Assembly (NCBI RefSeq): GCF_015714715.1
Contig: NZ_WAHS01000001.1
Span: forward strand, 62,001-126,000
Length of the DNA stretch: 64,000 bases
Direction of reading: 5' to 3'
Source: Aestuariivirga litoralis
GTDB taxonomy: Bacteria > Pseudomonadota > Alphaproteobacteria > Rhizobiales > Aestuariivirgaceae
Shown here: positions 2,287 through 23,516 of the stretch, piece after piece
Layout: every line of letters begins with the position of its first letter
How positions within the stretch are numbered: position 1 is the first letter of the stretch
Translations under genes and position numbers: made by a program
Notes under the pieces: generated by a model
Database searches by the model: none
The model's input: only the letters and a program-made list of their open reading frames with translations
What the model was told of the DNA's origin: nothing

Positions 2287-2297
2287 AGGTGTAGGCC

Positions 2298-5760: not shown

Positions 5761-5768
5761 GCGCAACC

Positions 5769-8627: not shown

Positions 8628-9470
8628 ATGCCGGAGATTATTCCGCAAAACGACGAAGACAAAGAACAACTCACGTATCTTCGTTCTCCGCCGGGAGAGA
8701 GAGGTTCGGGCGCGGTGCGTTACGCGGCGGCGATGTATTTCTTCCAACGCGGCATGCTGCATGCGCGTGACCTTGAGGCTTATCGCGCCCTGAGCAAGGT
8801 GGATGGCACGGCGGATAATCCTGCCGGGCAGGCGATCATGCAATTGGCCATGGAGACTGAGCGCTATATCAGCGGGCTCGAATTTCCCGGTAAAGCCGAT
8901 GTGATGGACGGCCTGGCGCGGTGGATGCGCGGGGCTCCGCAGGCGGTGAAGCCCGGCCATGTTCCGGCGCGCAGCCATGCGCGGGAGGCATTGGCTGCGA
9001 TGACGGATACGCGGCTGGCATCCGCCTTGGCTTCTGCGGTGCCGGTGCTGGGTTGGAGCGCTTTCACGCAGTACCCGGCTGATGAAATCGGCGCCAAATT
9101 TCTGCGTAACAATGCTTTTGCATCATTGGTGGGTGAGGGCTCGCCTTATCCGGCAGAAGATTTCGATCTCGGGTTTTTCGTTGTCGGGCCGCATACTTTT
9201 TACCGCGATCATTGCCATGCTGCGCCCGAGCTTTATGCGCCGCTGACCGGGCCGCATGGTTGGCGCTTCAAGCCGGGTGATCCGCTGCAATGGCTTGATG
9301 CGGATGTTCCGGTTTGGAACCCGCCGAACCAGCCGCATGCCACGATGACGGGCGATGTGCCTTTCCTCGCGATCTATTGCTGGACCCGCGATGTAAATGA
9401 GCCAGCGCGTGTGCTGTTCAGCAATGATTGGACAGCCATCGAGACGCAGTTCAGCGCTTCGTCAAAGTGA
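8628..9470 (+). CDS. DMSP-lyase-family cupin protein
   Basis: A 280-residue protein with a C-terminal cupin barrel resembling the dimethylsulfoniopropionate lyase family (DddQ/DddL-type cupins). The metal-site signature is visible as H195-x-H197-x3-E201-x-Y203, with H237 in NPPNQPHATMTG. In that family these residues bind the metal and the Tyr acts in beta-elimination. The N-terminal ~130 residues are helical and not recognised further. It is the last gene of the importer/Rieske operon, 2 nt after a permease, so it probably acts on the imported compound or a derivative. Whether it is a true DMSP lyase or a relative cleaving or isomerising another onium compound cannot be told from sequence. 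Its 3' end overlaps the convergent gene 9451-10164 by 20 nt. Confidence 0.75.
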   Translation: MPEIIPQNDEDKEQLTYLRSPPGERGSGAVRYAAAMYFFQRGMLHARDLEAYRALSKVDGTADNPAGQAIMQLAMETERYISGLEFPGKADVMDGLARWMRGAPQAVKPGHVPARSHAREALAAMTDTRLASALASAVPVLGWSAFTQYPADEIGAKFLRNNAFASLVGEGSPYPAEDFDLGFFVVGPHTFYRDHCHAAPELYAPLTGPHGWRFKPGDPLQWLDADVPVWNPPNQPHATMTGDVPFLAIYCWTRDVNEPARVLFSNDWTAIETQFSASSK

Positions 9471-10164
9471 AATAGCCGGACGCAACCGCGATCGCGGTGT
9501 CGGCCCCATGATAGAGGCACAAGGCGATCATCAAGGTGGGCAATTGCCCTACGGACCAGGCCAGCAAAGCGAGCAAGGGCAGCAACGTATCCAACCCGGA
9601 AAACCCGCTATGGATCAGTTCGAAAACATTTGGCCTTGCCTTTGTGTTTGGCTTTGTGCGCTGAATGCGTAGTTTCAAATCGCTGCGCGTGAGTTTGCCG
9701 AAGGTGGCGCAGACGGCGCAGAACAATCCCAGCGCCAGCCAACTTGGTGCAGGGCCAGGCGAAATGCCATCCGTGATCAATCCAAGTGCTGCAAGGCCAG
9801 TGATACGGTTTACCCCATCGCATGCGGCATCGAGATAGGCGCCTTGCGGGCTGGTTTTCCCGGTGGCACGGGCGAGCGGGCCATCGGCACAATCAAACAA
9901 CGAGAACAACACGCCGAACAGCGCGTAGAGCGGCAGTGCCGTATTGGGTGGCCAGAACCAAGCCACAACAGCCATCATCACCGTGGCCACCAGGCCTGCG
10001 AGGGTGAGTGTGGTGGGGGATATGTGCAAAGCCATCGCCACCCGCGCCAGGGCAAAGGCGGGCAGCCGGTAAAAAATGGCGGAGCCCCAATCGCCCCGGA
10101 TTTCATCGTGGAACTTGTTGTGCCAATAGTCCTGCGATATGGCCTTGAGGGTGGGGCGCGTCAT
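9451..10164 (-). CDS. CDP-alcohol phosphatidyltransferase family protein
   Basis: A 237-residue membrane enzyme of the CDP-alcohol phosphotransferase class, which transfers a phosphoalcohol from a CDP-activated donor to an acceptor alcohol. The full catalytic signature is present: D91-x2-D94-G95-x2-A98-R99-x8-G108-x3-D112-x3-D116. About 40 soluble residues precede the first helix, then roughly six helices. The N-terminal region and pairing resemble enzymes that use CDP-inositol: the neighbouring divergent gene at 10207 encodes a nucleotidyltransferase, and in archaeal di-inositol-phosphate synthesis the two activities are fused as cytidylyltransferase plus CDP-alcohol transferase. Substrate is inference. 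The stop lies inside the end of the convergent cupin gene. Confidence 0.88.
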   Translation of the reverse strand: MTRPTLKAISQDYWHNKFHDEIRGDWGSAIFYRLPAFALARVAMALHISPTTLTLAGLVATVMMAVVAWFWPPNTALPLYALFGVLFSLFDCADGPLARATGKTSPQGAYLDAACDGVNRITGLAALGLITDGISPGPAPSWLALGLFCAVCATFGKLTRSDLKLRIQRTKPNTKARPNVFELIHSGFSGLDTLLPLLALLAWSVGQLPTLMIALCLYHGADTAIAVASGYFTLTKR

Positions 10165-10206
10165 GCTAGAAATTCAATATCCGTTGGGCAGTACCGGATC
10201 ACTCTA

Positions 10207-10971
10207 ATGAAAAACATCACAGCCGTCATCCTGGCAGCGGGACGAGGCACCAGATTGCACGGACCGAACGGCGGCAAGCCCAAGGGCTTTCTCCCGGTTT
10301 TGGGCAAGACGTTCATTTCACGCGCCGTCGATATTCTGCAAGTCAGCGGGGTCAAGGATGTTGTGATCGTCACCGGGCATGAAGCGGGGCAATTCGAAAA
10401 CTTCGCTGCCACGCGAACTGGCGTGCGCTGCGCTTACAATCCGGAGTTTGCCAGCAAAGGTGCGGTGCAGAGTTTCATCGTGGGATTGCAGGCCAGTTCC
10501 GGCAGCGTGATTATGCTCGACGCCGATATTGTTTATGAAACGCGGGCGGTGGAGGCGGTGGTGAATGCGCCTGGGGACAGTGCCATTGCGCTTTCCAGCA
10601 TCAGCGGGCTGGGGGATGAGAATCTCGCCTGGACTGTGACGAGCGATCGAGGTCCAAGGCGATTGGCCCATATTTCCAAATTGCGATCCAGCCGCGATGG
10701 CTCGCCCGACTCTGAGCATGTTGGAATTATCAGGATGAGCGCGGCCCTTAGCGATGATTTGCGACGAGAGGGCGGGGCGATGGCCGATCGGAATCCGCAC
10801 ACGCTGTATGAGGAATGCCTAAATCATTTTCTTCCGGTCCATCCGGTTGAAGGTGTTTTCTTGCCCGAACTCGTATGGACAGAAGTGGATGATGAGGCGA
10901 TGTGGCAGCATGCGCAGGAAAATGTGTTTCCGAGGCTGGCCCTTTGCGATGCCGAGGTTGGTTTTCGCTAA
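10207..10971 (+). CDS. Sugar/polyol-phosphate nucleotidyltransferase (MobA/LicC-like)
   Basis: A 254-residue NTP transferase. The N-terminal nucleotide-binding loop is VILAAGRGTRLHG followed by KPKGFLPVLGK, the G-x-G-T-R-x(n)-PK pattern of nucleotidyltransferases; D-A-D in IMLDADIVYE binds the metal. I take ATG 10207, where homology begins; the reading frame is open much further upstream but that part is antisense to the divergent gene. It would activate a phosphorylated sugar, choline or inositol with CTP or another NTP. Adjacency to a CDP-alcohol phosphotransferase and to inositol-3-phosphate synthase makes an inositol-phosphate cytidylyltransferase plausible but unproven. The last 4 nt overlap the convergent CdsA-like gene. 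Confidence 0.82.
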   Translation: MKNITAVILAAGRGTRLHGPNGGKPKGFLPVLGKTFISRAVDILQVSGVKDVVIVTGHEAGQFENFAATRTGVRCAYNPEFASKGAVQSFIVGLQASSGSVIMLDADIVYETRAVEAVVNAPGDSAIALSSISGLGDENLAWTVTSDRGPRRLAHISKLRSSRDGSPDSEHVGIIRMSAALSDDLRREGGAMADRNPHTLYEECLNHFLPVHPVEGVFLPELVWTEVDDEAMWQHAQENVFPRLALCDAEVGFR

Positions 10972-11723
10972 GTCAGCACGCGCTGCAGCACGATGGCGGT
11001 GAGCGGAGCCGCGACGATCCAGGCGTCATAAATGTCGAGCATTCCACCTTGGCCTTGAAGGAGAACGGGATAGTCTTTGCGCCCCGCATTGCGCTTGGGC
11101 CATGATGCAGCAAGGTCGCCGAGCGTGGCAAAGGCCGCCGTGCAAATTGTGGCCCACGCGGCCTGAGCGGGCGTTGTGATGCCGGCCAAGGTCAGAAGGA
11201 GTGCGGCGACAGCGAGCGCCAGAAATCCGGTGGCAAAGCCTTCCCAGGTTTTGTTCGGGCTCAAGGCGGGGGCCAGCGGTGTGCGGCCGAACAGCCTTCC
11301 GCCGAGCAGGGCGAAACTGTCGAAGAATTCGACCAGCAAAAGTGACAGCAAGAGTGTGGTGGCGTGGGCCTTGTTGTCCAATTCCACACCAAGCAGGATC
11401 AGGGGCAGAATGGGCATGATCAAAAAGCCCACCAGCGCGGGCAACCGGCGTTGCTTTGGGGCCGCGCGCAGCACGATGAGCGCTTCGCAGATGATGCGGG
11501 CAGCAAAGGCCGCGAAGGCCAGCCAGATCCAGGGATGCGGCAGCAACACCAGCACTACGGGCAAAGCAAGAATGAATGCCTCCTGCAGAAGCATGCGTCG
11601 CGCGCCGGCCAGACGTGGTGCAAGCTGCGGTGACAGAAGCAGCACATGCAGAAGCGCCATGCCGCCGATCCAGGCGCAGAGCATTGCAATCAACAGAGGC
11701 TGAAGCGCTGCCGCAGGGATCAA
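10968..11723 (-). CDS. CdsA-like phosphatidate cytidylyltransferase (divergent)
   Basis: A 251-residue polytopic protein of the CDP-diglyceride synthetase family, which makes CDP-diacylglycerol from phosphatidate and CTP. The C-terminal signature region is recognisable (SWPKRNAGRKDYP, then GGMLDIYDAW), but two usually conserved positions differ: the family PGHGG reads QGQGG and the DRxDS reads DIYDA. The mid-protein sequence SPNKTWEGFATG is the usual second conserved block. It is the third gene of a minus-strand operon after inositol-3-phosphate synthase and the SDR (4-nt overlap with the SDR). A second, non-housekeeping CdsA devoted to this lipid pathway is the likely role; the substitutions could also mean a changed substrate. 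Confidence 0.83.
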   Translation of the reverse strand: MIPAAALQPLLIAMLCAWIGGMALLHVLLLSPQLAPRLAGARRMLLQEAFILALPVVLVLLPHPWIWLAFAAFAARIICEALIVLRAAPKQRRLPALVGFLIMPILPLILLGVELDNKAHATTLLLSLLLVEFFDSFALLGGRLFGRTPLAPALSPNKTWEGFATGFLALAVAALLLTLAGITTPAQAAWATICTAAFATLGDLAASWPKRNAGRKDYPVLLQGQGGMLDIYDAWIVAAPLTAIVLQRVLT

Positions 11724-12526
11724 GATTTTGCATCCAGGCGCGAGATGATGCTCTTGTGGTAGCGCCGCGAAACGGGCGCAAGAATGCCGCGCAACACTGA
11801 GATCAAAAGGGAGCGTCCGCCCATGGTGATGAGAAATTTTCCGGCTTTGGCGCCGGCTATCGTGACGCGCGCCACATGTTCCGCACTCTGTGAGGTGTGG
11901 CCGGCAATCTCGCTGGTGACGGCCGGCCGGCGTGCGCGCTCATAGGCCAGTTGCGGCGTGTCGGTATCATCCGGGCAAACAAGCGAGACGCAAATCTTCG
12001 GCGCGAGTTCCACCATCAGGGCTTCGGCTAATCCGTGAATGGCAAATTTGGAAGCGCCATAGGAGGCATAGCCATAGAGGCCGACCAGGCCTGCTACCGA
12101 GGAGAACAGGATCAAATGCCCGCCTTCGCCTGCGATCATTCCTGGAGCCACGAGATGTGCGAAGTTCAGGGTGCCCAGTGTATTGGTTTGCAGCTGGGCC
12201 GCATGTTCGGCAATCGGCTGGTCGAGAAATTTGCCCGGCTCGCAAATGCCAGCACAGGCGATCGCCCATTGCACGGGGCCGTGCTGTGCCACGGCATCAG
12301 CGATGGCTTGCTGCAGCTTTGCATAATCATTCACATCAACTGACGCCATGATGATGGAGGCCGCGGGGGCAACCGCTCTGATCTGGTCAGCGGCCTGTGC
12401 CAAACGCTGTGTGTTGCGGGCAATCAGCGTTACCGCGAAACCATTTTTGGCCAGTTCCTGTGCACAGGCCAGGCCAATGCCGCTGCTGCCGCCGGTAATA
12501 ATGGCGTGCGGCGGGCGCTCAGCCAT
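11720..12526 (-). CDS. Short-chain dehydrogenase/reductase, 3-ketodihydrosphingosine-reductase-like
   Basis: A 268-residue classical SDR. It has the NAD(P)-binding TGGSSGIG near the N-terminus, the catalytic Ser in LFSSVAG and the Y-x3-K pair in SYGASKFAIHG. The sequence CPDDTDTP after the active site and a C-terminal hydrophobic/basic tail resemble the 3-ketodihydrosphingosine reductase branch, which reduces long-chain ketones at a membrane. The start is ATG 12526, overlapping the end of the inositol synthase gene by 8 nt; an upstream in-frame start would lengthen it by 7 residues. It sits between inositol-3-phosphate synthase and CdsA, so a lipid substrate is likely. No serine palmitoyltransferase is visible, so sphingolipid synthesis cannot be claimed. 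Confidence 0.83.
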   Translation of the reverse strand: MAERPPHAIITGGSSGIGLACAQELAKNGFAVTLIARNTQRLAQAADQIRAVAPAASIIMASVDVNDYAKLQQAIADAVAQHGPVQWAIACAGICEPGKFLDQPIAEHAAQLQTNTLGTLNFAHLVAPGMIAGEGGHLILFSSVAGLVGLYGYASYGASKFAIHGLAEALMVELAPKICVSLVCPDDTDTPQLAYERARRPAVTSEIAGHTSQSAEHVARVTIAGAKAGKFLITMGGRSLLISVLRGILAPVSRRYHKSIISRLDAKS

Positions 12527-13613
12527 GAGCAGAAGGTGTGGCTGCAAAATCCAGCAGGCTTTGATAGGCGACCGTATCGGCCATCTGTTGCGGCGGGTGT
12601 TTGAACAGGAAGGCTGAGGCCTGCCAGATTGCGCCTTTCAATCCACGGTCGCGCGCGATGCGGGCGCAGCGGATGGCGGAGATTGCCATGGCGGCGGCAT
12701 TGGGAGAATCTTCTACCGTCAAGCGCGTCTCAATGCTGACCGGTGCGCCCCCGAATATGCGGCCTTCCAGCCTGATGTATCCCACCTTCTGGTCATTGAG
12801 CCATGGCACATAGTCGGAGGGGCCGATGCGCACATTGTCATCGGCCAGCCGGTCATTGACCGAGGACTGCACGGATTCGGTCTTGGATTTGCGCTTGCTG
12901 TCGAGGCGGGCACTATTGGCCATATTCAGGAAATCGGTGTTGCCGCCGATATTCAGCTGATAGGTGCGATCAAGCTCGGCATCGCGCAGGTCAAACAGGC
13001 TGGCCAGCGTGCGGTGCAGAACGGTGGCGCCGATCTGCGCCTTGAAATCATCACCCAGCAGCGGCAAACCCGCATCGTCGAAGCGCTTGGCCCAGCCCGC
13101 ATTGCTGGCCAGAAAAACCGGAATGGAATTCACAAAGGCGCAGCCCGCTTTCAAAGCGCAAGAAGCGTAAAATTCAGTGGCCTTCTGCGAACCCACGGGC
13201 AGGAAATTGATGACGACTTCGCACCCGGCCTGCTGGAGCAGGGCAACCACATCCTGCTCGCTCAGTTCCGGGGCATCGCTTTCCACGAAACGGCGGCCTT
13301 CGCCATGGGTTTGCATGCTGGATGAAAGCCCGTCGAGTGTTGGGCCGCGTGCCACCTTGATATTGCTGGGTGGCAGATCACGCTGAAAGACATAGGTGCA
13401 GTTGGGCGGCTGGAAAATGGCTTCGTTGAGATCATGTCCAACTTTGCGTTGGTCGATATCGAAGCCTGCAACGATTTCGATTTCGCCGGCACCATAGCCG
13501 CCGAGCACTGGAAAAGGCAGCCCAATGGGATCTGCCTCCTTGCGGCAATAGTAGACACCCTGGACAAGCGCGCTAGCGCAATTGCCCAAGCCAATGATTG
13601 CCGTTTTTATCAC
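12519..13613 (-). CDS. ino1: Inositol-3-phosphate synthase
   Basis: Myo-inositol-3-phosphate synthase, the NAD-dependent enzyme that cyclises glucose-6-phosphate and commits carbon to inositol. The N-terminal dinucleotide motif is IGLGNCASALVQG; conserved blocks LNIGGNTDFLNM and SKRKSKTESVQSS contain active-site residues of the family. The length (364 residues) fits the short prokaryotic form. I choose GTG 13613, preceded by GGGGAA with 8 nt spacing, over an in-frame TTG at 13661 that lacks a ribosome site. It heads a minus-strand operon with the SDR and CdsA-like genes. Few Proteobacteria make inositol lipids, so its presence beside phosphatidyltransferases is a strong pathway clue. Confidence 0.93.
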   Translation of the reverse strand: MIKTAIIGLGNCASALVQGVYYCRKEADPIGLPFPVLGGYGAGEIEIVAGFDIDQRKVGHDLNEAIFQPPNCTYVFQRDLPPSNIKVARGPTLDGLSSSMQTHGEGRRFVESDAPELSEQDVVALLQQAGCEVVINFLPVGSQKATEFYASCALKAGCAFVNSIPVFLASNAGWAKRFDDAGLPLLGDDFKAQIGATVLHRTLASLFDLRDAELDRTYQLNIGGNTDFLNMANSARLDSKRKSKTESVQSSVNDRLADDNVRIGPSDYVPWLNDQKVGYIRLEGRIFGGAPVSIETRLTVEDSPNAAAMAISAIRCARIARDRGLKGAIWQASAFLFKHPPQQMADTVAYQSLLDFAATPSAHG

Positions 13614-13621
13614 CCCAGCCG

Positions 13622-13627
13622 TTCCCC
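13622..13627 (-). promoter_or_regulatory. Ribosome binding site deciding the inositol synthase start
   Basis: GGGGAA on the minus strand lies 8 nt before the GTG at 13613. The alternative TTG at 13661 has no purine-rich element in front, so the GTG start is preferred. Confidence 0.5.
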
Positions 13628-13667
13628 AATGTTGTTTTGGCGTTAAAACTTTGTTAGCCAATCAGGA

Positions 13668-14453
13668 ATGGCGATTCAACAAGTTACACGTCAAAGTAGA
13701 CCAGACATGCAAGCAGAGCGCGTGTATAGGGCATGGTCTATACAACTTTTGCTTGTATCTGGGCCTGTGGCAACGGTCCTGTCCATCCTTGCTGCGCACG
13801 CCGCCAATACCATCATCCATTTTGACGCCTATAGAAATGGACCACCCTCAATCAGCCGCGCCATTGTCGATCCAGTGATTGGCGTTCCTTTTGCCTATGC
13901 CATGATTGTCGATGCGTTGTTGATCGGTGGTGGGGCTGCCATGGCGATTGCGAGTTATGCGTGGCTGGTGTCACGCCTGCTTATGCCGCGGCGCTGGCAT
14001 TTTGTTGTCGGCGCCATTGCGCTGGCGGAGGCTTTCGCGGTGGCCGGTATGGTGGTGCTTTCGCAATTTCGAACGTCGCCATGGCAAGAATGGCATGACG
14101 TTGGAAGCTACATGCTGTTTTTCGGCCATTGTGTTGGGATTGGCTTGTCGGGAATTCTGGCGCGGCGTGTGGTGGTGCAAATGGCGGGAGCCTCCCAGCC
14201 AGAGGACCGCGAACTGGTAGCAAGCGTGAAGTGGGCCCCGCCGCATTCCTGGTGGGTGGTGATTGTCGGAATTGTGTTTGGCGCGCTCTATTTCGGCGGG
14301 CACATGTTGGGCGATACCCTGCTTTTCTGGCGCCGGCTGCTCACGGCGAGTATCGAAGTGCTGCTGATTTCATATTTTGTCTGGTATCTCTGGCGGTATA
14401 CAAAATTTGTTTTATTGGTGAGCAGGGCCAAGGCAGGGCCGGGATCCGCATGA
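13668..14453 (+). CDS. Six-helix membrane protein, loosely Frag1/DRAM/Sfk1-like
   Basis: A 261-residue integral membrane protein of unknown function. Hydrophobic segments can be seen near residues 25-45, 70-95, 105-130, 145-165, 190-212 and 220-245. The extracytoplasmic sequence GPPSISRAI after the first helix and the six-helix layout loosely recall the Frag1/DRAM/Sfk1 family, some of whose members relate to GPI or phosphoinositide lipids; I do not consider this established. It overlaps the ABC exporter gene by 4 nt and is probably its partner. A later ATG at 13707 would drop the first 13 residues. The divergent inositol synthase start is only about 55 nt away, so the two operons share a promoter region. 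Confidence 0.6.
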   Translation: MAIQQVTRQSRPDMQAERVYRAWSIQLLLVSGPVATVLSILAAHAANTIIHFDAYRNGPPSISRAIVDPVIGVPFAYAMIVDALLIGGGAAMAIASYAWLVSRLLMPRRWHFVVGAIALAEAFAVAGMVVLSQFRTSPWQEWHDVGSYMLFFGHCVGIGLSGILARRVVVQMAGASQPEDRELVASVKWAPPHSWWVVIVGIVFGALYFGGHMLGDTLLFWRRLLTASIEVLLISYFVWYLWRYTKFVLLVSRAKAGPGSA

Positions 14454-16108
14454 AACTCGACCGCCGGCTTCTGTTCAGCATGATTGGCTTTCTGTGGCTG
14501 CACGCGCCGATGCGGCTGAAATATGCGCTGATCGTCCTGGCCATCACCACCGGTTTTTCCCGCGACTTTCTGATGGTGGTGGTCAACAAGGCGGCAGGCA
14601 GCGATATGGCCACTGCCTTTCACATTTACCTTCCGGTGTTCGTGGCGCTTCTCGGCATCTTTGTAGTTGCGACCTATAATTATCATGTGCTGGTCACTGC
14701 GGCGAATACGGAAGTCGTCAACAATGTGCGGCTGAAGCTGATCCGGCGGTTGCTGAATGCCGCACCCACCGTGATTGAATCGCATAAGCGCGGTTTTCTT
14801 TATCATATCCTGACCACTGATGTGAACATTGTGGCCAGCACGTCCAACATGATGCTCACACTGCTGCCGCTGTTCATTTTTCTCGTTGTGGCCATTCCGC
14901 AGCTGTTTTTCTATTCGTGGATCGCCGGGTTGTTTTCAGTTGCGGTGATGCTGGGCGGTGTTCTCGCCTATTATGTGCAACAGAAATCCATGGCTGCCCT
15001 TGGTGTGGATGTGCGCCGGCTCGAAGTTGAATATTTCGAAGGCGTGTCGGGGATGATCGATGGCTACCGGGAAACCAAGCTGAACCATGCGCGGCGCAAC
15101 AGCTTTGTGGCTGATGTGGCGGCCAATCTGAACAAGCTTCGGCTGGGGCTTATTTCCACCAGCAGAGTTTATGAAACTGGCGAAGTGGCCGTCAGCATGC
15201 TCAAATTCCTGCTATTCGCAGGCATTGTATTTCTGGCACCGTGGCTCCATGAAACGGCGGCACAGGTCACGTTTTCCGTGCTTACGCTTGTGCTGTTCTG
15301 CATGACGCCGTTTGAGCAGATCATTTCCAGTTATCCGTCCACGATCGCCAGCCTGGTGTCGTTCAGCCGCATCGAAGCGCTGGACGCGGAATTGGGCCCG
15401 CCGCTTCCCTTGATTGAGGATGCCTCGAAGCCGAAGCCGTTCGAGAGTTTGCAGTTGCGCAAATGCAAGGCCCGCTACAAGGCGCAACAGGGGAGGAATT
15501 TTGATCTTGGACCGATCGACCTCACCATCAAGCGTGGCGATGTGGTTTTCCTCGTGGGTGCCAATGGTAGCGGCAAGACCACCTTGCTCAATGTGATCGC
15601 CGGCCTGCACGAGCCCGTCTCCGGCGAGAGGCAAGTGAATGGAGAGACGTTGTCGCCGAACGGACTCGATGAATATCGTGCACGTATTTCGGCGGTGTTC
15701 GCGCGCTATCACGTTTTCCGGAAGCTTTTCGGGCTGGAACATGTGCCCGACACCAAAGTGAGCGAGATGATGAACCATCTCAATCTGCGTGGTGAAACCG
15801 GATGCATCGGTGGGCAGATCACGCGCATGGAAATGTCGTCAGGCCAGAAGCGCCGGCTTGCCCTGGTGGTCAGCCTGCTGGAAGACCGGGACATCCTGAT
15901 CCTCGATGAATTCCTTTCTGATCAGGATCAGACTCAACGGGTTTTCTTTTTTGAGACTTTGCTGCCGGAACTCAAGGCCAAAGGAAAGACCGTGATCCTG
16001 GCCACGCATGATCTCAATTGGGCGAAGGCGTGCGATCAGTTGGTGACGTTGGCGGACGGCAAGATTGTCAGCGTGACGCACCCGCGCGAAGCCGCCGTGC
16101 CGGCCTAG
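14450..16108 (+). CDS. ABC exporter, membrane domain fused to ATPase (cyclic-peptide/SyrD-PvdE type)
   Basis: A 552-residue half-transporter. The N-terminal ~330 residues have six helices of the ABC exporter fold; the C-terminal nucleotide-binding domain has Walker A GANGSGKTT, the signature MSSGQKRRLALV, Walker B ILILDEF and the switch His in ATHDLNW. Walker B is followed by LSDQDQTQRVFFFE, the spacing of the cyclic-peptide exporter family represented by PvdE and SyrD. These move peptides or lipopeptides from cytoplasm to periplasm. The ATG 14450 overlaps the previous stop. Next to lipid-headgroup and synthetase genes it may flip the completed glyco- or peptidolipid. Substrate is unknown. 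Confidence 0.88.
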   Translation: MKLDRRLLFSMIGFLWLHAPMRLKYALIVLAITTGFSRDFLMVVVNKAAGSDMATAFHIYLPVFVALLGIFVVATYNYHVLVTAANTEVVNNVRLKLIRRLLNAAPTVIESHKRGFLYHILTTDVNIVASTSNMMLTLLPLFIFLVVAIPQLFFYSWIAGLFSVAVMLGGVLAYYVQQKSMAALGVDVRRLEVEYFEGVSGMIDGYRETKLNHARRNSFVADVAANLNKLRLGLISTSRVYETGEVAVSMLKFLLFAGIVFLAPWLHETAAQVTFSVLTLVLFCMTPFEQIISSYPSTIASLVSFSRIEALDAELGPPLPLIEDASKPKPFESLQLRKCKARYKAQQGRNFDLGPIDLTIKRGDVVFLVGANGSGKTTLLNVIAGLHEPVSGERQVNGETLSPNGLDEYRARISAVFARYHVFRKLFGLEHVPDTKVSEMMNHLNLRGETGCIGGQITRMEMSSGQKRRLALVVSLLEDRDILILDEFLSDQDQTQRVFFFETLLPELKAKGKTVILATHDLNWAKACDQLVTLADGKIVSVTHPREAAVPA

Positions 16109-16114
16109 GCTCAC

Positions 16115-17233
16115 ATGCGCATCCTTCTCGTTTCCGCCTATGACCTGTCGCGTCCAGGCGGTGTGCAGTCTCACATTCATTCACTGGCAGAAGCGCTGCG
16201 GCAGCGCGGCCACGATGTGAAATGCGTAGGGCCAGGGCAGCAGGGACTGGGCGCGGCGAAATCCATCTCGCTGTCGGGCACGGGATTTGAAGTCAGCTTT
16301 GTTAGCCGGGTCAGCCTGCAGCAATTCCTGAAGGAGATGGCGGCATGGACACCGGATGTCGTCCATGTTCACGGCATCTGGGTACCTTTTTTGCCCATAC
16401 AGATATTACGAACTGTTCCTGCAGCGCGGGTTGTGACTTTTCATGATACGACGGCGCCTTCTTTTTCAGGCTTTTTGTTGCGGCAGGCGTTCAAAGTTCT
16501 GAGCAGGCTGGTGCTTGCAAATGTGGATGCGGCAATTGTGGTTTCGCGCCTGCCATTGGCGCATTTGCGGCCAGGCCGGAATGGCGTGAAACCTGTTATC
16601 CTGTCGCCTGCGGTGGATCTCGCTCCTTTCACAAAGCTGCGGCGAAAGGCGAAAGCTGGGCGGCCTGTCGTTTTGTATTGGGGCCGATTGGAACCGCGCA
16701 AAAACATTGGAACACTGTCGGAGGCCATCAAGCTGATCGCGGCCGGGCAAGATGAACTTGCTCCACACTTTGTGATCGCAGGTGCAGGCGTGGATGCGGG
16801 CAAGGTGCTTGCTTTGCAACAACAGCTTGGAGACGAGTGGATTAGCTTCGTCTCACCGCCTGATCCTGCAGGATTGCTGGAGCTGATCGCAAAGGCATCG
16901 CTGGCGGTGTTTCCCGCGGCCTATGGAGAAAGCTTTGGCATTGTGCTGGCTGAGGCCATGGCATCCGGGCTTCCCATTTTGGCGGCCGACAATGCGGGTT
17001 ACAGCGATATGCTGGGTGCCGAGGGAGCGGACATGTTGTTCGCGAAGCATGATGCTTCGGCACTTGCAGACAGGATCATGGCGCTGCTTGCCGACAAGGC
17101 CCCACGGGATGCGCAAATCGCTGCGGGCCAGCGCATCGCCGCATCCCATGATGTAATCCAGCAGATAGAAAAATTCGAAACGATCTATCGAGAGGCCGTC
17201 ATTCGGCATCAAAGCTCGAAACGCGAGGCTTGA
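16115..17233 (+). CDS. Glycosyltransferase family 4, PimA-like
   Basis: A 372-residue GT-B glycosyltransferase. The N-terminus MRILLVSAYDLSRPGGVQSH and the C-terminal nucleotide-sugar motif GESFGIVLAEAMASG match the pattern of phosphatidyl-myo-inositol mannosyltransferase PimA, although both motifs also occur in other GT4 enzymes. The central linker has LYWGRLEPRKN, the usual start of the second Rossmann domain. It follows the ABC exporter by 6 nt in the same direction. With inositol-3-phosphate synthase and a PIP-synthase-like phosphatidyltransferase close by, glycosylation of an inositol lipid is an attractive role. The sugar donor cannot be read from sequence. The 3' end overlaps the convergent Stealth gene by 25 nt. 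Confidence 0.88.
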   Translation: MRILLVSAYDLSRPGGVQSHIHSLAEALRQRGHDVKCVGPGQQGLGAAKSISLSGTGFEVSFVSRVSLQQFLKEMAAWTPDVVHVHGIWVPFLPIQILRTVPAARVVTFHDTTAPSFSGFLLRQAFKVLSRLVLANVDAAIVVSRLPLAHLRPGRNGVKPVILSPAVDLAPFTKLRRKAKAGRPVVLYWGRLEPRKNIGTLSEAIKLIAAGQDELAPHFVIAGAGVDAGKVLALQQQLGDEWISFVSPPDPAGLLELIAKASLAVFPAAYGESFGIVLAEAMASGLPILAADNAGYSDMLGAEGADMLFAKHDASALADRIMALLADKAPRDAQIAAGQRIAASHDVIQQIEKFETIYREAVIRHQSSKREA

Positions 17234-18165
17234 GGGAACCAGTTTTCCAACTGGCGGCTGGCCAGCCAAGTGGTAACGCGTGACGGATGCGCGCCGAAAT
17301 TGTCGTTGAAGGTGGACCAGCGGGCTTCCGGATGCCTGGCCTTGCGCAAAGCGTTCCAGGTGACGGGCCAGAAATTTTCCAGCGGAACATAGGCTGTCTT
17401 GATGCCGCTGGCGCTCACCGACTCCAGTACCGCCTTGCCTTCGGCATGCAGCATCCAGGGATAGACGATGGAAGGCACGATATTGTTTGCGGCGCGGAAT
17501 TTTGAAGCCCGTGTGATTGCGAATTCTTCCGCGAAGGTTTCGGTCATGCGTTTCCAATCCCGGCGGCGGATCAGGCGGGGTGAATGGGCAAGCTGGCGGC
17601 GGCGCGCGGGGTTGAAGTGCCTGTCCAGCAATGCGCCCGTATGGGCCTGCGCCAGATTCCATGGGCTGGTTCTTTCCGGATTTGAAATCTCTGCGTTGCG
17701 TGGTTCCCAAAGGGTCCATGGGAAGACGCGCAAGCGGCCATCCTCATCTTCAAAATCTGCCAGATTGAGCGGTGCACGCGCCACCATGTCATCATTGAAA
17801 TAGATGAAACGCTCACTGAGGCCCGGCAGCAGATGCAAATGGCTGTTGATGGCGAATGAGTTGAAGGTGGGCAGGTTTGCAGGATCGATGATCTCATCAT
17901 GATGCACAATGCGCAATTGCGGGTGTGCTGTGTTGAGCCAGTGCGGCACCTGTGGCCTGCAGGTGAAGAGATGAATTTTCCCTACCCAGGCGGGCAGTGG
18001 CTCAAGGCTGCGCAGGCTGTAACGGAGCAGGCCGAGATTATCGCGGGTGCGATTTGGATTTGTGTCGGCGGGCTTTTGGGCATGCTGCAAAAGTTCTGCG
18101 TGGTGGCCCGGCCAGGCATCGTCCACCCACGTGTAAACGATATCGACTGTTTCAGTCTTGGCCAA
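17209..18165 (-). CDS. Stealth-family sugar-phosphate transferase
   Basis: A 318-residue protein with Stealth conserved regions in order: CR1 VDIVYTWVDDAWP near residue 8, CR2 beginning RDNLGLLRYSLRSL and ending in the catalytic-type RFIYFNDDMV, then CR3/CR4-like sequence with PSIVYPWMLHAEG. Stealth proteins transfer sugar-1-phosphates from nucleotide sugars to glycans in capsule and envelope polymers. The usual glycan cluster is absent here; instead it is flanked by a PimA-like glycosyltransferase and an FGGY kinase. A phosphosugar decoration of a lipid headgroup or secreted glycan is possible. It is transcribed alone on this strand and diverges from the kinase gene. Confidence 0.88.
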   Translation of the reverse strand: MAKTETVDIVYTWVDDAWPGHHAELLQHAQKPADTNPNRTRDNLGLLRYSLRSLEPLPAWVGKIHLFTCRPQVPHWLNTAHPQLRIVHHDEIIDPANLPTFNSFAINSHLHLLPGLSERFIYFNDDMVARAPLNLADFEDEDGRLRVFPWTLWEPRNAEISNPERTSPWNLAQAHTGALLDRHFNPARRRQLAHSPRLIRRRDWKRMTETFAEEFAITRASKFRAANNIVPSIVYPWMLHAEGKAVLESVSASGIKTAYVPLENFWPVTWNALRKARHPEARWSTFNDNFGAHPSRVTTWLASRQLENWFPQASRFEL

Positions 18166-18228
18166 ACGGGTCGCTCCTGCTAGTCATACAAATAGAATAA
18201 TAGCCAGATTATCAGTTACCTACGCGTT

Positions 18229-18234
18229 GAGGAA
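18229..18234 (+). promoter_or_regulatory. Ribosome binding site for the TTG-started kinase gene
   Basis: GAGGAA lies 8 nt before TTG 18243 and supports that unusual start, where homology to the FGGY N-terminus (VAVDVGTTAIK) also begins. Confidence 0.6.
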
Positions 18235-18242
18235 CAGAAGTA

Positions 18243-19787
18243 TTGAAACCTGCTGAGCTCATCGTTGCGGTTGATGTGGGGACCACCGCAATCAAGCTGG
18301 CCGTTCTCAACCGTGAATTTGATTGCCTGGCGGAAGCGGCGGTGCCGCTTAAACTTTCGCATCCCCAACCACTCTGGGCTGAACAGGATCCAGAAGATTG
18401 GTGGCAAGCGGTTGCGGCCGCCATGAAGCTGGTGCAGAAATCCGTTCCCTCTTTAAAAACCAAAGCTGCCGCTTTGGTGTTTGTTGCGCAGATGTGCGGT
18501 GTGGTGGCGGTGGATAAAAAGGGCAAGCCTTTGCGCCCCTGCCTCACCTGGCTCGACAAACGGGCAGGTTCCATGATCCGCGCGCGGATGGCGGGTGTTC
18601 CGCGCATTGCCGGTTATGGCCTGTTCAAACTGCTGCGCTCCCTTCGGCTGACCAATGGTGCACCTTCACTCAATGGCATGGACCCGGTGGCCAAGATGAT
18701 TTGGCTGCAAGCGCATGAGCCGGACGTTTGGGCCAAGACCCACAAGCTGCTTGATGTGCGCGATTGGGTTGTGCACCGGGCCACGGGCAAGTTCATCACC
18801 ACGGCTGATAGCGCCAATCTCACCTGGATGATGGATTCACGCAGGGGTGGGGCCGAATGGTCGCCACAACTGCTCAAGCTCTATGGCGTGCCGCGCCAGA
18901 TGCTGCCCGATATTGTGCCGGGCTCCGCGATTGCGGGCGAGCTCACGGAAATTGCGGCGCGCGCGCTCGGTCTCAACGTTGGGCTTCCGGTGGTCGCGGG
19001 TTCCGGTGATGTGTTTGCCGCAGCACTGGGCAGCGGAGCCGTCGATGACGGTATGCTGCATATTTCACTTGGCACAAGCGCCTGGATCGGCGGATTTTTC
19101 CCGGGCCGCCGGTTCAACGTGGCTGCCTCCTATGCCACCATTGCCGGTGCGGTGAACAACCGCCCCTTGCTCATTGCCACACAGGAATGCGCGGGCGCAT
19201 GCCTCGACTGGTTTTCCAAAGTTCGGGGCAGGAAGGCGGATGCGCTGGGGTTCAGCCCGCGTGCTTCGATGCCGATGTTCTTGCCCTGGCTGGCGGGTGA
19301 GCGCGTGCCGGTGGATGACAATCGCCTTCGCGCAGCCTTTCTGGGGCTTTCGCTCGAGCATGATTCAGATGACATGATGGCTTCGGTGGCAGAGGGCATT
19401 GCCCTCAATCTGCGCTGGGCGATGAACTCGGTCAAAAAGCAGAGGGGCGTGGTCAAGGGTGCTGCACTGACGGTTGTCGGAGGCGCGGCGCTGAATGATG
19501 GCTTGTGCCAGATCATCGCTGATTGCCTGGGCCAAGACCTGCTGCGCGCACCCAATCCGCGCTTTGCGGGCATGCGCGGTGCTGCGCTGATGGCGGCGGA
19601 AAGCCTGGGCTGGCAGGCATCTGCCTTCGAAGCTGCAAAGGCCTTGTCCAGCAAAGGCGAGCGGCGTTTCATTGCGGACCCCGCAAAATCTGCTTACTAT
19701 GCGAAACGATTTAAACTGTTCGAAGCCGCTTATCGCCGTCTGGCGCCATGGTTGAGGACTTACGCCAGCCAGATGCTGCATGATTGA
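18243..19787 (+). CDS. FGGY-family carbohydrate/polyol kinase
   Basis: A 514-residue kinase of the FGGY family (xylulokinase/glycerol kinase superfamily). The N-terminal ATP-binding core is VAVDVGTTAIKLAV; the substrate region includes LTWLDKRAG; the C-terminal half has GSGDVFAAALGSG and ISLGTSAW, then the adenosine motif VVGGAALNDGLCQI. It starts at TTG with a good ribosome site. Its stop overlaps the start of the phosphatidyltransferase gene by 8 nt, implying coupled translation. In this context it may make the phospho-polyol accepted by that transferase rather than serve sugar catabolism; no sugar isomerase or sugar transporter is nearby. Substrate is unknown. Confidence 0.88.
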   Translation: MKPAELIVAVDVGTTAIKLAVLNREFDCLAEAAVPLKLSHPQPLWAEQDPEDWWQAVAAAMKLVQKSVPSLKTKAAALVFVAQMCGVVAVDKKGKPLRPCLTWLDKRAGSMIRARMAGVPRIAGYGLFKLLRSLRLTNGAPSLNGMDPVAKMIWLQAHEPDVWAKTHKLLDVRDWVVHRATGKFITTADSANLTWMMDSRRGGAEWSPQLLKLYGVPRQMLPDIVPGSAIAGELTEIAARALGLNVGLPVVAGSGDVFAAALGSGAVDDGMLHISLGTSAWIGGFFPGRRFNVAASYATIAGAVNNRPLLIATQECAGACLDWFSKVRGRKADALGFSPRASMPMFLPWLAGERVPVDDNRLRAAFLGLSLEHDSDDMMASVAEGIALNLRWAMNSVKKQRGVVKGAALTVVGGAALNDGLCQIIADCLGQDLLRAPNPRFAGMRGAALMAAESLGWQASAFEAAKALSSKGERRFIADPAKSAYYAKRFKLFEAAYRRLAPWLRTYASQMLHD

Positions 19788-20460
19788 CGGACTCTACAAA
19801 AGCAAACTCGACACGATTTGGAATGTGCTGGCGCGGCCTGTGGCCCGGGTTCTGACAGCCAACCAAGTGACTTACTCCGGGCTTGGCCTCGTGGTGGCCA
19901 GCTGCGCAGCCTTCCTCTGGCACGGCTCCACGCCGTTGTTCGGACTTTGTTTGCTGGTTTCCTTCGCAGCGGATTCTCTGGATGGCGCGGTGGCGCGGCT
20001 GCGCGGCGAGGCCTCGCATTATGGTGGCTACCTTGATGCGATGATTGATCGTTATCAGGAAGTGATCTTGTTCGTTGTTCTGGGTTTTGTCAGCGGTGCT
20101 TATCTGCCGGCCTTCCTGGCTTGCACCGGAGCGCTGATCACCAGCTATGCAAAGGCGCGCACTGCAATTGAAATGTCCATTTCCAACGAAGACTGGCCGG
20201 ATTTCTTCGAGCGGCAGGAGCGGCTGATTTTCGTGATCGTGATGCTTTTGGTGCTGCCCTGGCTAGCCTTTGCATTTGGCAAAACCGAGGGCCAAATGAT
20301 GAGCTTATGTCTGTGGATTCTTGCTGGTCTCTGTCACGCCACGGCGTTGCAGCGCTTTTCGCGCGCGCGCAATATGCTGTCGACTTTTGATGTGGCTACC
20401 AAGGCCAAAGCAGCGCCAATGCAAGCGCCGGAACAGCCGCAAAAACATCATCTATCATAA
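19780..20460 (+). CDS. CDP-alcohol phosphatidyltransferase, phosphatidylinositol-phosphate-synthase-like
   Basis: A 226-residue membrane enzyme carrying the complete signature D65-x2-D68-G69-x2-A72-R73-x8-G82-x3-D86-x3-D90. The following block, SYAKARTAIEM then FERQERL, resembles the SYxxAR and ERxER motifs of mycobacterial and archaeal phosphatidylinositol-phosphate synthases, which join CDP-diacylglycerol to inositol-3-phosphate. About six helices are visible. The C-terminal ~25 residues are Ala/Gln/Pro-rich and encoded antisense to the end of pgpA. It is coupled to the FGGY kinase (8-nt overlap). The acceptor could be inositol-3-phosphate or the kinase product. This is the key step of the proposed lipid pathway. 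Confidence 0.88.
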   Translation: MIDGLYKSKLDTIWNVLARPVARVLTANQVTYSGLGLVVASCAAFLWHGSTPLFGLCLLVSFAADSLDGAVARLRGEASHYGGYLDAMIDRYQEVILFVVLGFVSGAYLPAFLACTGALITSYAKARTAIEMSISNEDWPDFFERQERLIFVIVMLLVLPWLAFAFGKTEGQMMSLCLWILAGLCHATALQRFSRARNMLSTFDVATKAKAAPMQAPEQPQKHHLS

Positions 20461-20869
20461 TGGCCCAGCCGTGCCGGAACCAGGTATCAGCAAGGCGAAT
20501 GGGCCAGGGTTTCAGGATGTCAAAAAAGCGGAAGGCTACGAGCGCCACCAGCCAGCGTGACCAGTCCGGCGGCAGAAAACACAGAATGAATAGCATGGCC
20601 ACGGTTTCATCCCAGACGACATTGGGGTGATCGGCTTGGCCCAGGCGTTCCTCCGCCTTGCTGCAGCAGGCCACGCCAAGCAAGAAGAGCAGGAACACAA
20701 CGATCAGGCATCCGATTACGCTCAGGCCTGCATGCCACAGGGCCCATGCTATCGGCAGGGCGATGATTGCACCGGCCGTGCCCGGCGAGAAGGGTGCAAG
20801 GCCTGCCCCAAAACTCAACGCAATGAAGCAATGAGGGTTTTTCAATTCGGACCAATGTGGCATAGTCAT
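20396..20869 (-). CDS. pgpA: Phosphatidylglycerophosphatase A family protein
   Basis: A 157-residue membrane phosphatase of the PgpA family, which dephosphorylates phosphatidylglycerophosphate. Conserved blocks are visible: GAGLAPFSPGTAGAI near the N-terminus, VVWDETVAML, the FRFFDILKPWPI block and the C-terminal IMIDDVFAAVPA. I start at ATG 20869 (an ATG at 20863 is equivalent). The upstream reading frame is open for about 50 codons but has no family sequence. It overlaps the convergent phosphatidyltransferase gene by 65 nt. It may be the housekeeping enzyme, or it may remove the terminal phosphate from the phosphatidyl-polyol phosphate made next door. Confidence 0.88.
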   Translation of the reverse strand: MTMPHWSELKNPHCFIALSFGAGLAPFSPGTAGAIIALPIAWALWHAGLSVIGCLIVVFLLFLLGVACCSKAEERLGQADHPNVVWDETVAMLFILCFLPPDWSRWLVALVAFRFFDILKPWPIRLADTWFRHGWAIMIDDVFAAVPALALALLWPW

Positions 20870-20965
20870 AGCGGGGTCACTCGCATGGTGTGAGGCGCAA
20901 GGCAAGATGGGACGACGGGCAATGGGGGAGTGCTGGATACGGTTTGACCGGCACTGTGGACCCGC

Positions 20966-21445
20966 ATGCTGATCAGTTTCTCGGTTGCCTTGGCCCTGGT
21001 GTTGATTGGGGCGCAGCTGCATTTCTTAGAGGGAGAGACGCTGGTTTCGGATCTGCTGGACGAGTGGTGGCTCTCGCGCACCAGCCTGCAGGGGCTTGAC
21101 CGACGGTGGGCGGCAAATGGCAGCAAATCAGGCGTCATCATTTCCCTGACCTCCACGCCTTCGCGCGCGATGCAGGATACGGGTTTGGAGCTGAGCGGCT
21201 GGATCGTGCCGGATGATCTGACTGACAAACATACCACCATCCTCACCAACCTGCTGATGAGAGCACGCCCGTCGGTGCGCGCCCGCCGTAGCAATTACCA
21301 GGCGAAGGCGCTGCGCCCCTTCTATAGTGGCAACAGCCTGGGCCGCATCAACCGGGGGCCGGGCGGCAATGAAAAACGCAATAACAGTGTGATGCTGAGA
21401 TATTTCAGCGGGCGCTGGCTATTTGAATTGGCTCCGCATGGCTAG
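20966..21445 (+). CDS. Hypothetical membrane-anchored protein
   Basis: A 159-residue protein I do not recognise. It has one N-terminal hydrophobic segment (about residues 3-20) that could be a signal anchor, followed by a polar domain rich in Arg and Ser. The ATG at 20966 has no clear ribosome site. Its last 8 nt overlap the start of the LptF/G-like gene, and the coupling is the main reason to accept it as real. It might be an accessory subunit of that permease. A non-coding alternative cannot be excluded because the opposite strand is also open here. Confidence 0.45.
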   Translation: MLISFSVALALVLIGAQLHFLEGETLVSDLLDEWWLSRTSLQGLDRRWAANGSKSGVIISLTSTPSRAMQDTGLELSGWIVPDDLTDKHTTILTNLLMRARPSVRARRSNYQAKALRPFYSGNSLGRINRGPGGNEKRNNSVMLRYFSGRWLFELAPHG

Positions 21446-22649
21446 GCGCCGCAGGAAGATCAGCGGGCGTGGTGCCAACTGGACCATGGCCACCTATTTT
21501 GCAGGCCGCGTGAGCGTATTGGCCACAGGCTTTCTGGTGACCGGCGTTTTCATTCTGCTGATGGCGCGCCTGCTGATTGTTTTCAACCTGGTGGTTGAAG
21601 GCCGCGCGCCATGGGGGCAGGCGATCATGCTGGTCGTCTATTTCATGCCGCATTATATCGGGCATATTCTGGCCTTCGCGATTTTCTTCGGCGTGTTCGA
21701 GACAGTGCGCCGAATGGAGCAGCAGGGCGAATTGGTGGCGATGGTGCAAATCGGCATTTCGCCCCGCGGTTTTCTCATCACACCTATTATCCTGGCCTTG
21801 GTCATGAGCGCCATCGCCACTGTCTTGTTGGGCTGGCTTGAGCCCTGGAGCCGGTATGACTTCCGGATGACGCGCGGCAATATCAAACTGGCGGCCAGTC
21901 TGGAATTGCTGCAGCCCGGCAAGTTCAGCCCGATCGGCAATAGCACTGTGTGGGTGGAGAGCTTTGCCAAAGAGCCCCACACATTCAACAACGTCTTCAT
22001 CTACGGTGAGGACGGCGACAAGTGGAGCGTGATCTCCGCCCAAAAAGCCCAGCTGCAAGTGGGCGGCAGCAAGGCCTTCCTGATGGTGGAAAACGGGGTG
22101 AAGACGACGCGGGTGCCGGATGCCGATACCAACATCATGGTCAATTCAACCTTTGACCAATTGCAATTTGACCTGCTTGATCTTGAAACGGGCCTGCGGC
22201 CGATCGGTGCCGACGAACAGGAATTCACCATTCCGGAACTTGTGGTGCAGGCTGACGAGCCTCCTGCCGGGACGCGGGCCAGTGAAATGAAGGCGGAGCT
22301 TTCCTGGAAGCTGGGCATGATCATCGCGCCCGTCATTTTCTCCATCGCGGCTGTGGGTTTTGGGATATTGCTGGCACTGCGGCACTCGCGGCTGATCTGG
22401 GCTCTGGCCTTGCTGTTTTTTCTGGCCGGCTTTCACCAACTGAACGCCTATGGCGAGTTGATCAGTGACGGGCTGCATCTCGATGCGCGCCTCTATGTGG
22501 GCATCCTGCTGGCGGCCTTCTCGGTGTTTGGCGTGCTGATTTTGAGAGCGGGTTATGCCCGTGTGGGCTGGGAACAGGCCAGGCCGGTGCAGCGGCGGCG
22601 CAAGCGCGTCAAGAGGCGTCCGGTGCCGGTCGCCCGGAGAGCCGCCTGA
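21438..22649 (+). CDS. LptF/LptG-like permease
   Basis: A 403-residue protein of the YjgP/YjgQ (LptF/LptG) permease family. Three N-terminal helices (about residues 17-115), a periplasmic beta-jellyroll-like domain (about 120-275, with KLAASLELLQPGKFSP) and three C-terminal helices match the family. LptFG extract lipopolysaccharide from the inner membrane. Canonical lptF and lptG normally lie together near other lpt or envelope genes; this single copy lies in a phospholipid cluster, so it may be a dedicated extractor for another lipid. The strongly basic tail (RRRKRVKRRP) is unusual. The start is ATG 21438; a TTG-like start 15 nt upstream is possible. Confidence 0.8.
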   Translation: MARRRRKISGRGANWTMATYFAGRVSVLATGFLVTGVFILLMARLLIVFNLVVEGRAPWGQAIMLVVYFMPHYIGHILAFAIFFGVFETVRRMEQQGELVAMVQIGISPRGFLITPIILALVMSAIATVLLGWLEPWSRYDFRMTRGNIKLAASLELLQPGKFSPIGNSTVWVESFAKEPHTFNNVFIYGEDGDKWSVISAQKAQLQVGGSKAFLMVENGVKTTRVPDADTNIMVNSTFDQLQFDLLDLETGLRPIGADEQEFTIPELVVQADEPPAGTRASEMKAELSWKLGMIIAPVIFSIAAVGFGILLALRHSRLIWALALLFFLAGFHQLNAYGELISDGLHLDARLYVGILLAAFSVFGVLILRAGYARVGWEQARPVQRRRKRVKRRPVPVARRAA

Positions 22650-23389: not shown

Positions 23390-23516
23390 ATCCTGCTGCT
23401 GTTCAGAACCGAAGCCTTACCATATGGTCTTCCGATACAATTGCGGGATTGTTCATGGCTTGGTCAAATCGTTTTCCGGGCTTCGTTTCATCGGACCCAC
23501 AGAGGATCCGCCTCGT

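What the first reader, a model, noticed from the sequence alone, without database searches (positions are those of the whole stretch)
9451..22649. Candidate inositol/polyol phospholipid pathway in an alphaproteobacterium
Inositol-3-phosphate synthase, a PIP-synthase-like CDP-alcohol transferase with SYxxAR and ERxER blocks, a second CDP-alcohol transferase, a nucleotidyltransferase, a CdsA paralogue, PgpA and a PimA-like glycosyltransferase are packed within 13 kb. Family knowledge links these to the synthesis of CDP-diacylglycerol, phosphatidylinositol phosphate, phosphatidylinositol and its glycosides. Such a complete set is unusual in Proteobacteria. The pathway itself is inference.
Basis: partly seen in the sequence, partly recalled or inferred. 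Interest (0 to 1): 0.85.

Follow-up and report, generated by a model that had tools for sequence, protein, structure and literature searches.

The report
Inositol glycolipid gene cluster in Aestuariivirga
A gene cluster in the bacterial genus Aestuariivirga and some of its relatives probably builds a sugar-decorated inositol lipid, perhaps on a sphingolipid base as plants and fungi do, and the idea can be tested in cultured strains.

The parts
9451..10164 (-). CAP1, second CDP-alcohol transferase; signature DCADGPLAR...GAYLDAACD present; donor and acceptor unknown
   Evidence: PF01066 36.4 bits over cut-off; profile of 19 homologues matches AF2299 and choline phosphotransferases weakly; lacks SYxKAR and ERxxR
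10207..10971 (+). NTPT, PntC-type cytidylyltransferase, likely makes a CDP-activated small headgroup
   Evidence: profile top PDB match 6pd1 (PntC domain) 222.6 bits; LicC 71; inositol-1-P cytidylyltransferase 40
10968..11723 (-). CdsA paralogue with altered signature (QGG..DIxD instead of HGG..DRxD)
   Evidence: PF01148 120 bits; housekeeping CdsA elsewhere has HGG..DRVD; 48 of 56 cluster CdsA in the 80 loci have Q and a non-R residue
11720..12523 (-). SDR, ketosphinganine-reductase-like; start overlaps the MIPS stop
   Evidence: profile top PDB match TSC10 8jat 154.6 bits, next 131.5; single-sequence search puts TSC10 8th
12519..13661 (-). MIPS, inositol-3-phosphate synthase
   Evidence: PF01658 112.9 bits; TIGR03450 381 bits
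13668..14453 (+). six-helix membrane protein, probable Frag1/DRAM/Sfk1 relative
   Evidence: 20 of 24 homologues match PF10277 at E<=0.001, best 2.3e-14; the window's own copy only 0.0033, below cut-off; no PDB fold match at E<=0.001
14456..16108 (+). ABC exporter, SyrD/YojI-like (TIGR01194)
   Evidence: 283 bits against a cut-off of 286
16115..17233 (+). GT4 glycosyltransferase, substrate unassigned
   Evidence: PF00534, PF13439 over cut-off
17209..18165 (-). Stealth-type sugar-1-phosphate transferase
   Evidence: PF11380 104.9 and PF17102 30.9 bits, over cut-offs
18243..19787 (+). FGGY-family polyol/sugar kinase, own subfamily with QMCG..WLDKR
   Evidence: PF00370/PF02782; XylB 266 bits, below cut-off 380; stop overlaps the CAP2 start
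19780..20460 (+). CAP2, PIP-synthase-like CDP-alcohol transferase
20396..20869 (-). PgpA-family phosphatase, probable PIP phosphatase
   Evidence: PF04608; only PgpA of the genome; co-occurs with CAP2
21423..22649 (+). LptF/LptG-family permease; membership of the cluster uncertain
   Evidence: PF03739 154.7 bits; LptF/G-like genes in reach in 49 of 80 loci, but the Shimia LptF/G queries give no tblastn match at 1e-3 in this window
22678..23392 (-). broken remnant of a GINT1_N-domain glycosyltransferase gene, in two frames; N-terminal domain not found

Best explanation
The cluster encodes an envelope glyco-phosphoinositol lipid pathway. [quoted passage not shown] The CdsA paralogue makes a CDP-lipid. 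CAP2 swaps CMP for inositol-3-phosphate, giving a lipid-phosphoinositol-phosphate. PgpA removes the terminal phosphate. GT4 and the Stealth enzyme (and, in relatives, GINT1-domain enzymes) add sugars and a sugar-phosphate; NTPT plus CAP1 add a CDP-derived phospho-headgroup; the Frag1-like protein and the ABC exporter (perhaps an LptF/G permease) handle or move the product. The SDR probably reduces a 3-keto sphingoid base, so a sphingolipid is made by or feeds into the same system. Supported by sequence: enzyme families, acceptor-site residues, co-occurrence and synteny. Inferred: every reaction, their order, the lipid backbone, the sugars, the kinase substrate and transport.
Against: No lipid data. 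None of CAP2, MIPS, FGGY or NTPT reaches its NCBIfam equivalog cut-off. R94 conservation is partly built in: 77 of 80 loci were found with a pattern holding that residue. The P153 groove position of MtPgsA1 is L, Q, M, F, T or P here. MIPS or PgpA is out of reach in many CAP2 loci (38 and 28 of 80 hold them). 15 MIPS-positive relatives lack CAP2. No AUR1/PAP2-type gene among the window proteins scanned. Genome relatedness inflates counts.
Confidence: 0.72

Rival explanations
1. Plain glycerolipid version: the product is phosphatidylinositol (diacylglycerol base) and its glycosides, as in mycobacteria; the SDR and neighbouring SPT-like genes serve something else.
For: CAP2 is closest to CDP-diacylglycerol-using PIP synthases; canonical SPT is common in the window's family without the cluster (81 of 150 relatives); the window's cluster holds no SPT; Mesorhizobium loci carry only PgpA and CAP2 in reach.
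Against: SDR sits between MIPS and CdsA in nearly every locus that holds it and as a profile matches TSC10 best; SPT-like enzyme in the same operon in Shimia; GINT1_N association.
Confidence: 0.33
2. CAP2's acceptor is a polyol phosphate made by the FGGY kinase, not inositol phosphate.
For: FGGY and CAP2 are adjacent in 68 of 71 loci with both and overlap in the window; 38 of 80 CAP2 loci hold MIPS in reach against 71 for FGGY.
Against: The inositol-phosphate-site residues are invariant; all 14 CAP2-positive relatives have MIPS; one relative (G103) has CAP2, PgpA and MIPS together with no FGGY match in the 20 kb in hand. The kinase may instead salvage inositol or prime a sugar donor.
Confidence: 0.12
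3. NTPT and CAP1 form a CDP-inositol route like the proposed alternative cluster of Bacteroides vulgatus or the di-inositol-phosphate route.
For: NTPT and CAP1 lie beside MIPS in the window; Heaver et al. propose such a route for an NTP transferase plus CDP-alcohol transferase (passages).
Against: NTPT profile fits PntC (222.6 bits) far better than inositol-1-phosphate cytidylyltransferase (40 bits); CAP1 lacks the inositol-phosphate motifs.
Confidence: 0.08
4. Ordinary housekeeping phospholipid genes (PG/PE synthesis) that happen to lie together.
For: CdsA, PgpA and CDP-alcohol transferases are housekeeping families.
Against: Separate CdsA, PgsA-like and PssA-like genes lie elsewhere in the genome; PgpA is absent (over cut-off) from 134 of 150 relatives; the locus is accessory within the genus (MIPS in 9 of 37).
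Confidence: 0.03

Closest known systems
Bacteroides thetaiotaomicron inositol lipid cluster BT_1522-1526 (MIPS, PIP synthase, PgpA-family PIP phosphatase, AUR1-like synthase)
   Same: MIPS, a PIP-synthase-like CDP-alcohol transferase and a PgpA-family protein together; inositol phosphate route with a PIP intermediate; Bacteroides makes both PI and inositol-phosphoceramide (passages).
   Different: No AUR1/PAP2-type gene among the 20 window proteins scanned; extra CdsA paralogue, ketosphinganine-reductase-like SDR, FGGY kinase, Stealth, PntC-type NTPT, Frag1-like protein, ABC exporter; CAP2 scores only 48.6 bits against the BT1523 model (cut-off 350).
Mycobacterial PgsA1 (PIP synthase)
   Same: Fold and acceptor-site residues.
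   Different: About 26% identity in the structural alignment; P153 and M69 lipid-groove positions differ; embedded in another gene set.
Caulobacter ceramide phosphoglycerate pathway (CpgA-CpgD)
   Same: CTP-dependent nucleotidyltransferase making a CDP-headgroup that a CDP-alcohol transferase is proposed to use on a sphingolipid (abstract and passages).
   Different: Glycerate, not inositol; no MIPS; homology of NTPT to CpgD was not tested here.
Plant glycosyl-inositol-phosphoceramide synthesis (GINT1) and eukaryotic ketosphinganine reductase
   Same: GINT1_N domain in cluster relatives; TSC10-like SDR.
   Different: Bacterial proteins put the GINT1_N-type domain behind a different N-terminal domain; the window's copy is broken; GINT1_N may have other roles in bacteria.

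Membership tests
PIP synthase (bacterial/archaeal, inositol-phosphate acceptor) | CDP-alcohol signature DxxDGxxAR(x8)GxxxDxxxD | tested here: met
   present in the window protein; 79 of 80 homologues match exactly, the 80th has AVSR; partly selected by the search patterns
PIP synthase (bacterial/archaeal, inositol-phosphate acceptor) | acceptor-site residues R94, S132, K135, R137, R155, R195 of MtPgsA1 | tested here: met
   36 of 36 aligned homologues; absent as motifs from PgsA, PssA and CAP1 of the same genome
PIP synthase (bacterial/archaeal, inositol-phosphate acceptor) | fold closer to PIP synthases than to PGP, PS or choline transferases | tested here: met
PIP synthase (bacterial/archaeal, inositol-phosphate acceptor) | NCBIfam equivalog cut-off (NF045883 170, NF040950 180, NF052561 350 bits) | tested here: not met
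   66.8, 113 and 48.6 bits; hence called PIP-synthase-like
PIP synthase (bacterial/archaeal, inositol-phosphate acceptor) | enzyme activity with inositol-3-phosphate | not testable with these tools
   needs biochemistry
Bacteroides BT_1522-1526 type cluster | MIPS, PIP synthase and PgpA-family phosphatase together | tested here: met
   window and 14 of 150 relatives
Bacteroides BT_1522-1526 type cluster | AUR1/PAP2-type inositol-phosphoceramide synthase in the cluster | tested here: not met
   no such Pfam match among the 20 window proteins scanned; rest of genome not searched
3-ketosphinganine reductase (KDSR/TSC10) | SDR active site and nucleotide motif | tested here: met
   GGSSGIG, S142, Y155, K159 invariant in 20 of 20
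3-ketosphinganine reductase (KDSR/TSC10) | closest solved relative is TSC10 | tested here: inconclusive
   profile: first, 154.6 against 131.5 bits; single sequence: 8th, 74.3 against 82.4
Serine palmitoyltransferase (cluster enzyme of relatives) | closest to SPT among alpha-oxoamine synthases | tested here: inconclusive
   PDB profile: SPT 358, KBL 316 bits; NCBIfam: bioF 328, SPT 289, none over cut-off
Canonical CdsA | HGG..DRxD signature end | tested here: not met
   window QGG..DIYD; housekeeping copy HGG..DRVD
PntC aminoethylphosphonate pathway | PEP mutase in the genome | tested here: not met
   TIGR02320 best 44.8 bits in this genome (cut-off 319.55); over cut-off in 2 of 16 genomes, the two Stappiaceae
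Frag1/DRAM/Sfk1 | PF10277 match | tested here: inconclusive
   20 of 24 homologues at E<=0.001; window copy 17.4 bits, cut-off 30.3; L141 homologue 39 bits
GINT1-type glycosyltransferase | PF24793 domain over cut-off | tested here: not met
   window remnant 22.3-25.5 bits, cut-off 27, in two frames; intact in relatives

The most novel reading that the evidence does not exclude
The cluster is a bacterial counterpart of eukaryotic glycosyl-inositol-phosphoceramide (or GPI-like) synthesis: a ketosphinganine-reductase step like that of yeast and Bacteroides supplies a sphingoid base; the altered CdsA paralogue activates ceramide-1-phosphate (or a related sphingoid phosphate) to CDP-ceramide instead of making CDP-diacylglycerol; CAP2 joins it to inositol-3-phosphate; PgpA frees inositol-phosphoceramide; GT4, GINT1-type and Stealth enzymes glycosylate it; NTPT/CAP1 add a phospho-headgroup such as phosphoethanolamine or aminoethylphosphonate. 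A CDP-ceramide route would be a new way to make inositol-phosphoceramide, unlike the AUR1 transfer of Bacteroides, fungi and plants.
Probability: 0.22. Interest if true: 0.92.

Novelty: new variant of a known kind. Interest (0 to 1): 0.7.

Why it matters
Inositol lipids are rare in bacteria. Heaver et al. 2022 (passages read) found an inositol-phosphoceramide-like lipid in the alphaproteobacterium Novosphingobium acidiphilum without either known gene cluster, so genes for such lipids in Alphaproteobacteria are an open question; I did not test whether that species has this cluster. Here is a candidate gene set, present in cultured genera (Aestuariivirga, Shimia, Stappia), with a predicted PIP intermediate and a sphingolipid link. 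If the CDP-ceramide reading holds it is a new route; if only the phosphatidylinositol reading holds it still extends glycosylated inositol lipids, with probable PgpA-type PIP phosphatases, to a new group.

Tried and rejected
Rejected or weakened: (1) CAP2 as PGP or phosphatidylcholine synthase. (2) PgpA as housekeeping PGP phosphatase: it is the genome's only PgpA, but 134 of 150 relatives have none over cut-off; a double role in this genome is not excluded. (3) NTPT as inositol-1-phosphate cytidylyltransferase. (4) NTPT as aminoethylphosphonate enzyme in this genome: no PEP mutase over cut-off. (5) Strictly SPT-free function: two Stappiaceae genomes lack the canonical SPT at 1e-70 but hold an SPT-like enzyme beside MIPS.

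Led nowhere: PDB and BFVD fold searches of the Frag1-like protein gave nothing at E<=0.001; a promoter/terminator scan was at shuffle level; polar-lipid reports for Aestuariivirga, Shimia or Stappia with phosphatidylinositol were not found; a five-term search gave 0 papers. The library holds openly licensed papers only, so absence of print is not shown.

Limits: home-built HMM thresholds for context counts; loci cut at 10 kb; the 80 loci and 150 genomes are related, so p-values overstate independence; R94 and part of the signature were in the retrieval patterns; ceramide synthase and reductase names in L090 and L099 are by eye and recall; the PPDTDTP motif as a KDSR mark is recalled.
Full report
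Setting. The window is part of a 3.33 Mb, 4-contig genome.

Observation. All named genes are intact. In order: CAP1 (-), NTPT (+), CdsA paralogue, SDR and MIPS (all -, with overlapping ends), Frag1-like protein, ABC exporter, GT4 (+), Stealth (-), FGGY kinase and CAP2 (+, overlapping), PgpA (-).

Co-occurrence. In the same 150 relatives, MIPS matches in 29, PgpA over cut-off in 16 (a 17th below it) and CAP2 strongly in 14 (a 15th, G095, weakly at 9e-9). All 14 have MIPS and PgpA; PgpA occurs in 2 of the other 136, both MIPS-positive (Fisher 7e-18, uncorrected for relatedness). In the genus CAP2 and PgpA are in the same 8 of 37 genomes. G006 has MIPS only, in a fragmented assembly. BT_1525 of Bacteroides is a precedent for a PgpA-family PIP phosphatase.

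Distribution. A genome-contig scan gave 101 confirmed CAP2 loci, 80 kept: mostly Rhodobacteraceae (Shimia), Stappia, Aestuariivirga, Mesorhizobium and unclassified Alphaproteobacteria, with some beta-, gammaproteobacterial and Desulfobacterales-labelled records. Context counts and adjacency. Four Mesorhizobium loci show only PgpA and CAP2 in reach.

Sphingolipid-type signals. (a) The SDR profile matches yeast TSC10 best (154.6 bits; next 131.5), though the window sequence alone ranks TSC10 8th. (b) 24 of 80 loci hold an SPT-like alpha-oxoamine synthase in reach; in a Shimia the gene order is SPT-like, DUF4833, MIPS, SDR, CdsA, LptF-like, LptG-like, GT4, FGGY, CAP2, all on one strand. Its profile matches SPT best in the PDB (358 bits; KBL 316), but NCBIfam ranks bioF first (328) and SPT second-tier (289), none over cut-off. 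Of 8 loci with MIPS, SDR and at least 2.2 kb upstream of MIPS, 5 hold it and 3 (all Aestuariivirgaceae-type) do not. (c) The window's genome has a canonical SPT elsewhere (575 bits, cut-off 500), beside an acyl-AMP-ligase-like gene and a DAGK-domain lipid kinase. Canonical SPT is in 81 of 150 relatives and in 12 of the 14 CAP2-positive ones; the other two hold the SPT-like enzyme beside MIPS. (d) GINT1_N, named after a plant inositolphosphorylceramide glycosyltransferase, is in 8 of 37 genus genomes (7 over cut-off; the eighth is the window's remnant); all 8 are MIPS-positive, 1 of 9 MIPS-positive and 28 of 28 MIPS-negative genomes lack it; 0 of 14 control genomes. In the window the remnant lies in two frames and its N-terminal part is not found. 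(e) The Frag1-like protein: 20 of 24 homologues match at E<=0.001, the window copy does not (0.0033). Eukaryotic roles of this family in GPI-anchor lipid remodelling are recalled.

Other parts. The CdsA paralogue departs from the canonical signature, which suggests but does not show another lipid substrate. NTPT is PntC-like, yet only the two Stappiaceae of 16 genomes have PEP mutase, so its substrate here is open; Caulobacter CpgD and CpgA offer an analogue. The FGGY kinase is xylulokinase-like with a QMCG..WLDKR variant; its role is unknown.

Judgement. That the cluster makes a phosphoinositol lipid through a PIP-type intermediate is likely (0.72). Whether the base is ceramide is open; I hold the diacylglycerol-only version at 0.33 and the CDP-ceramide version at 0.22. 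Everything chemical is inference.

Noticed in passing
L099 (G087:C1:198001-218000); also G132: Another family of the order has SPT (467 bits, cut-off 500), a ketoacyl synthase, a ceramide-synthase-like gene, LptF/G-like genes, PgpA, MIPS, GT4, a DXD sugar transferase, a polysaccharide deacetylase and an AIP-synthase-like CDP-alcohol transferase within 20 kb: a candidate inositol-sphingolipid cluster of its own.
   Followed up: partly
window 22678-23392 (-): Broken GINT1_N-type gene remnant in two frames; intact versions (about 550-590 aa) lie inside the cluster of relatives.
   Followed up: partly
window 27024-31118 (-) and 31214-31876 (-): A 1364-aa protein with adenylation, carrier and hexapeptide-repeat parts, resembling poly-amino-acid synthetases (recalled), next to a weak phosphopantetheinyl-transferase match.
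   Followed up: no
window 8628-9470 (+) and 1045-8625: A DMSP-lyase-family cupin beside genes that look like Rieske oxygenases, an aminomethyltransferase-like protein and a polyamine/betaine-type ABC importer (the last three by eye).
   Followed up: no
L042 11487-14122 and L197 (G108:C12:27739-28548): In Stappiaceae the cluster lies beside an SPT-like gene, a PhnW-like transaminase (by eye) and a true PEP mutase, hinting at an aminoethylphosphonate-decorated lipid there.
   Followed up: partly
L163 9179-14399: Mesorhizobium loci keep only PgpA and CAP2 in reach, with a PfkB-family kinase and a sugar-binding protein nearby; inositol phosphate may come from uptake and phosphorylation there.
   Followed up: no
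L120 1486-2154: A DUF4833 protein sits between the SPT-like gene and MIPS; DUF4833 is in reach in 30 of 80 CAP2 loci, but no match at E<0.4 was found in the window.
   Followed up: partly
L034-L039, L045, L092, L108, L114: A FabF-like ketoacyl synthase recurs near the cluster in Aestuariivirga relatives and other families.
   Followed up: no
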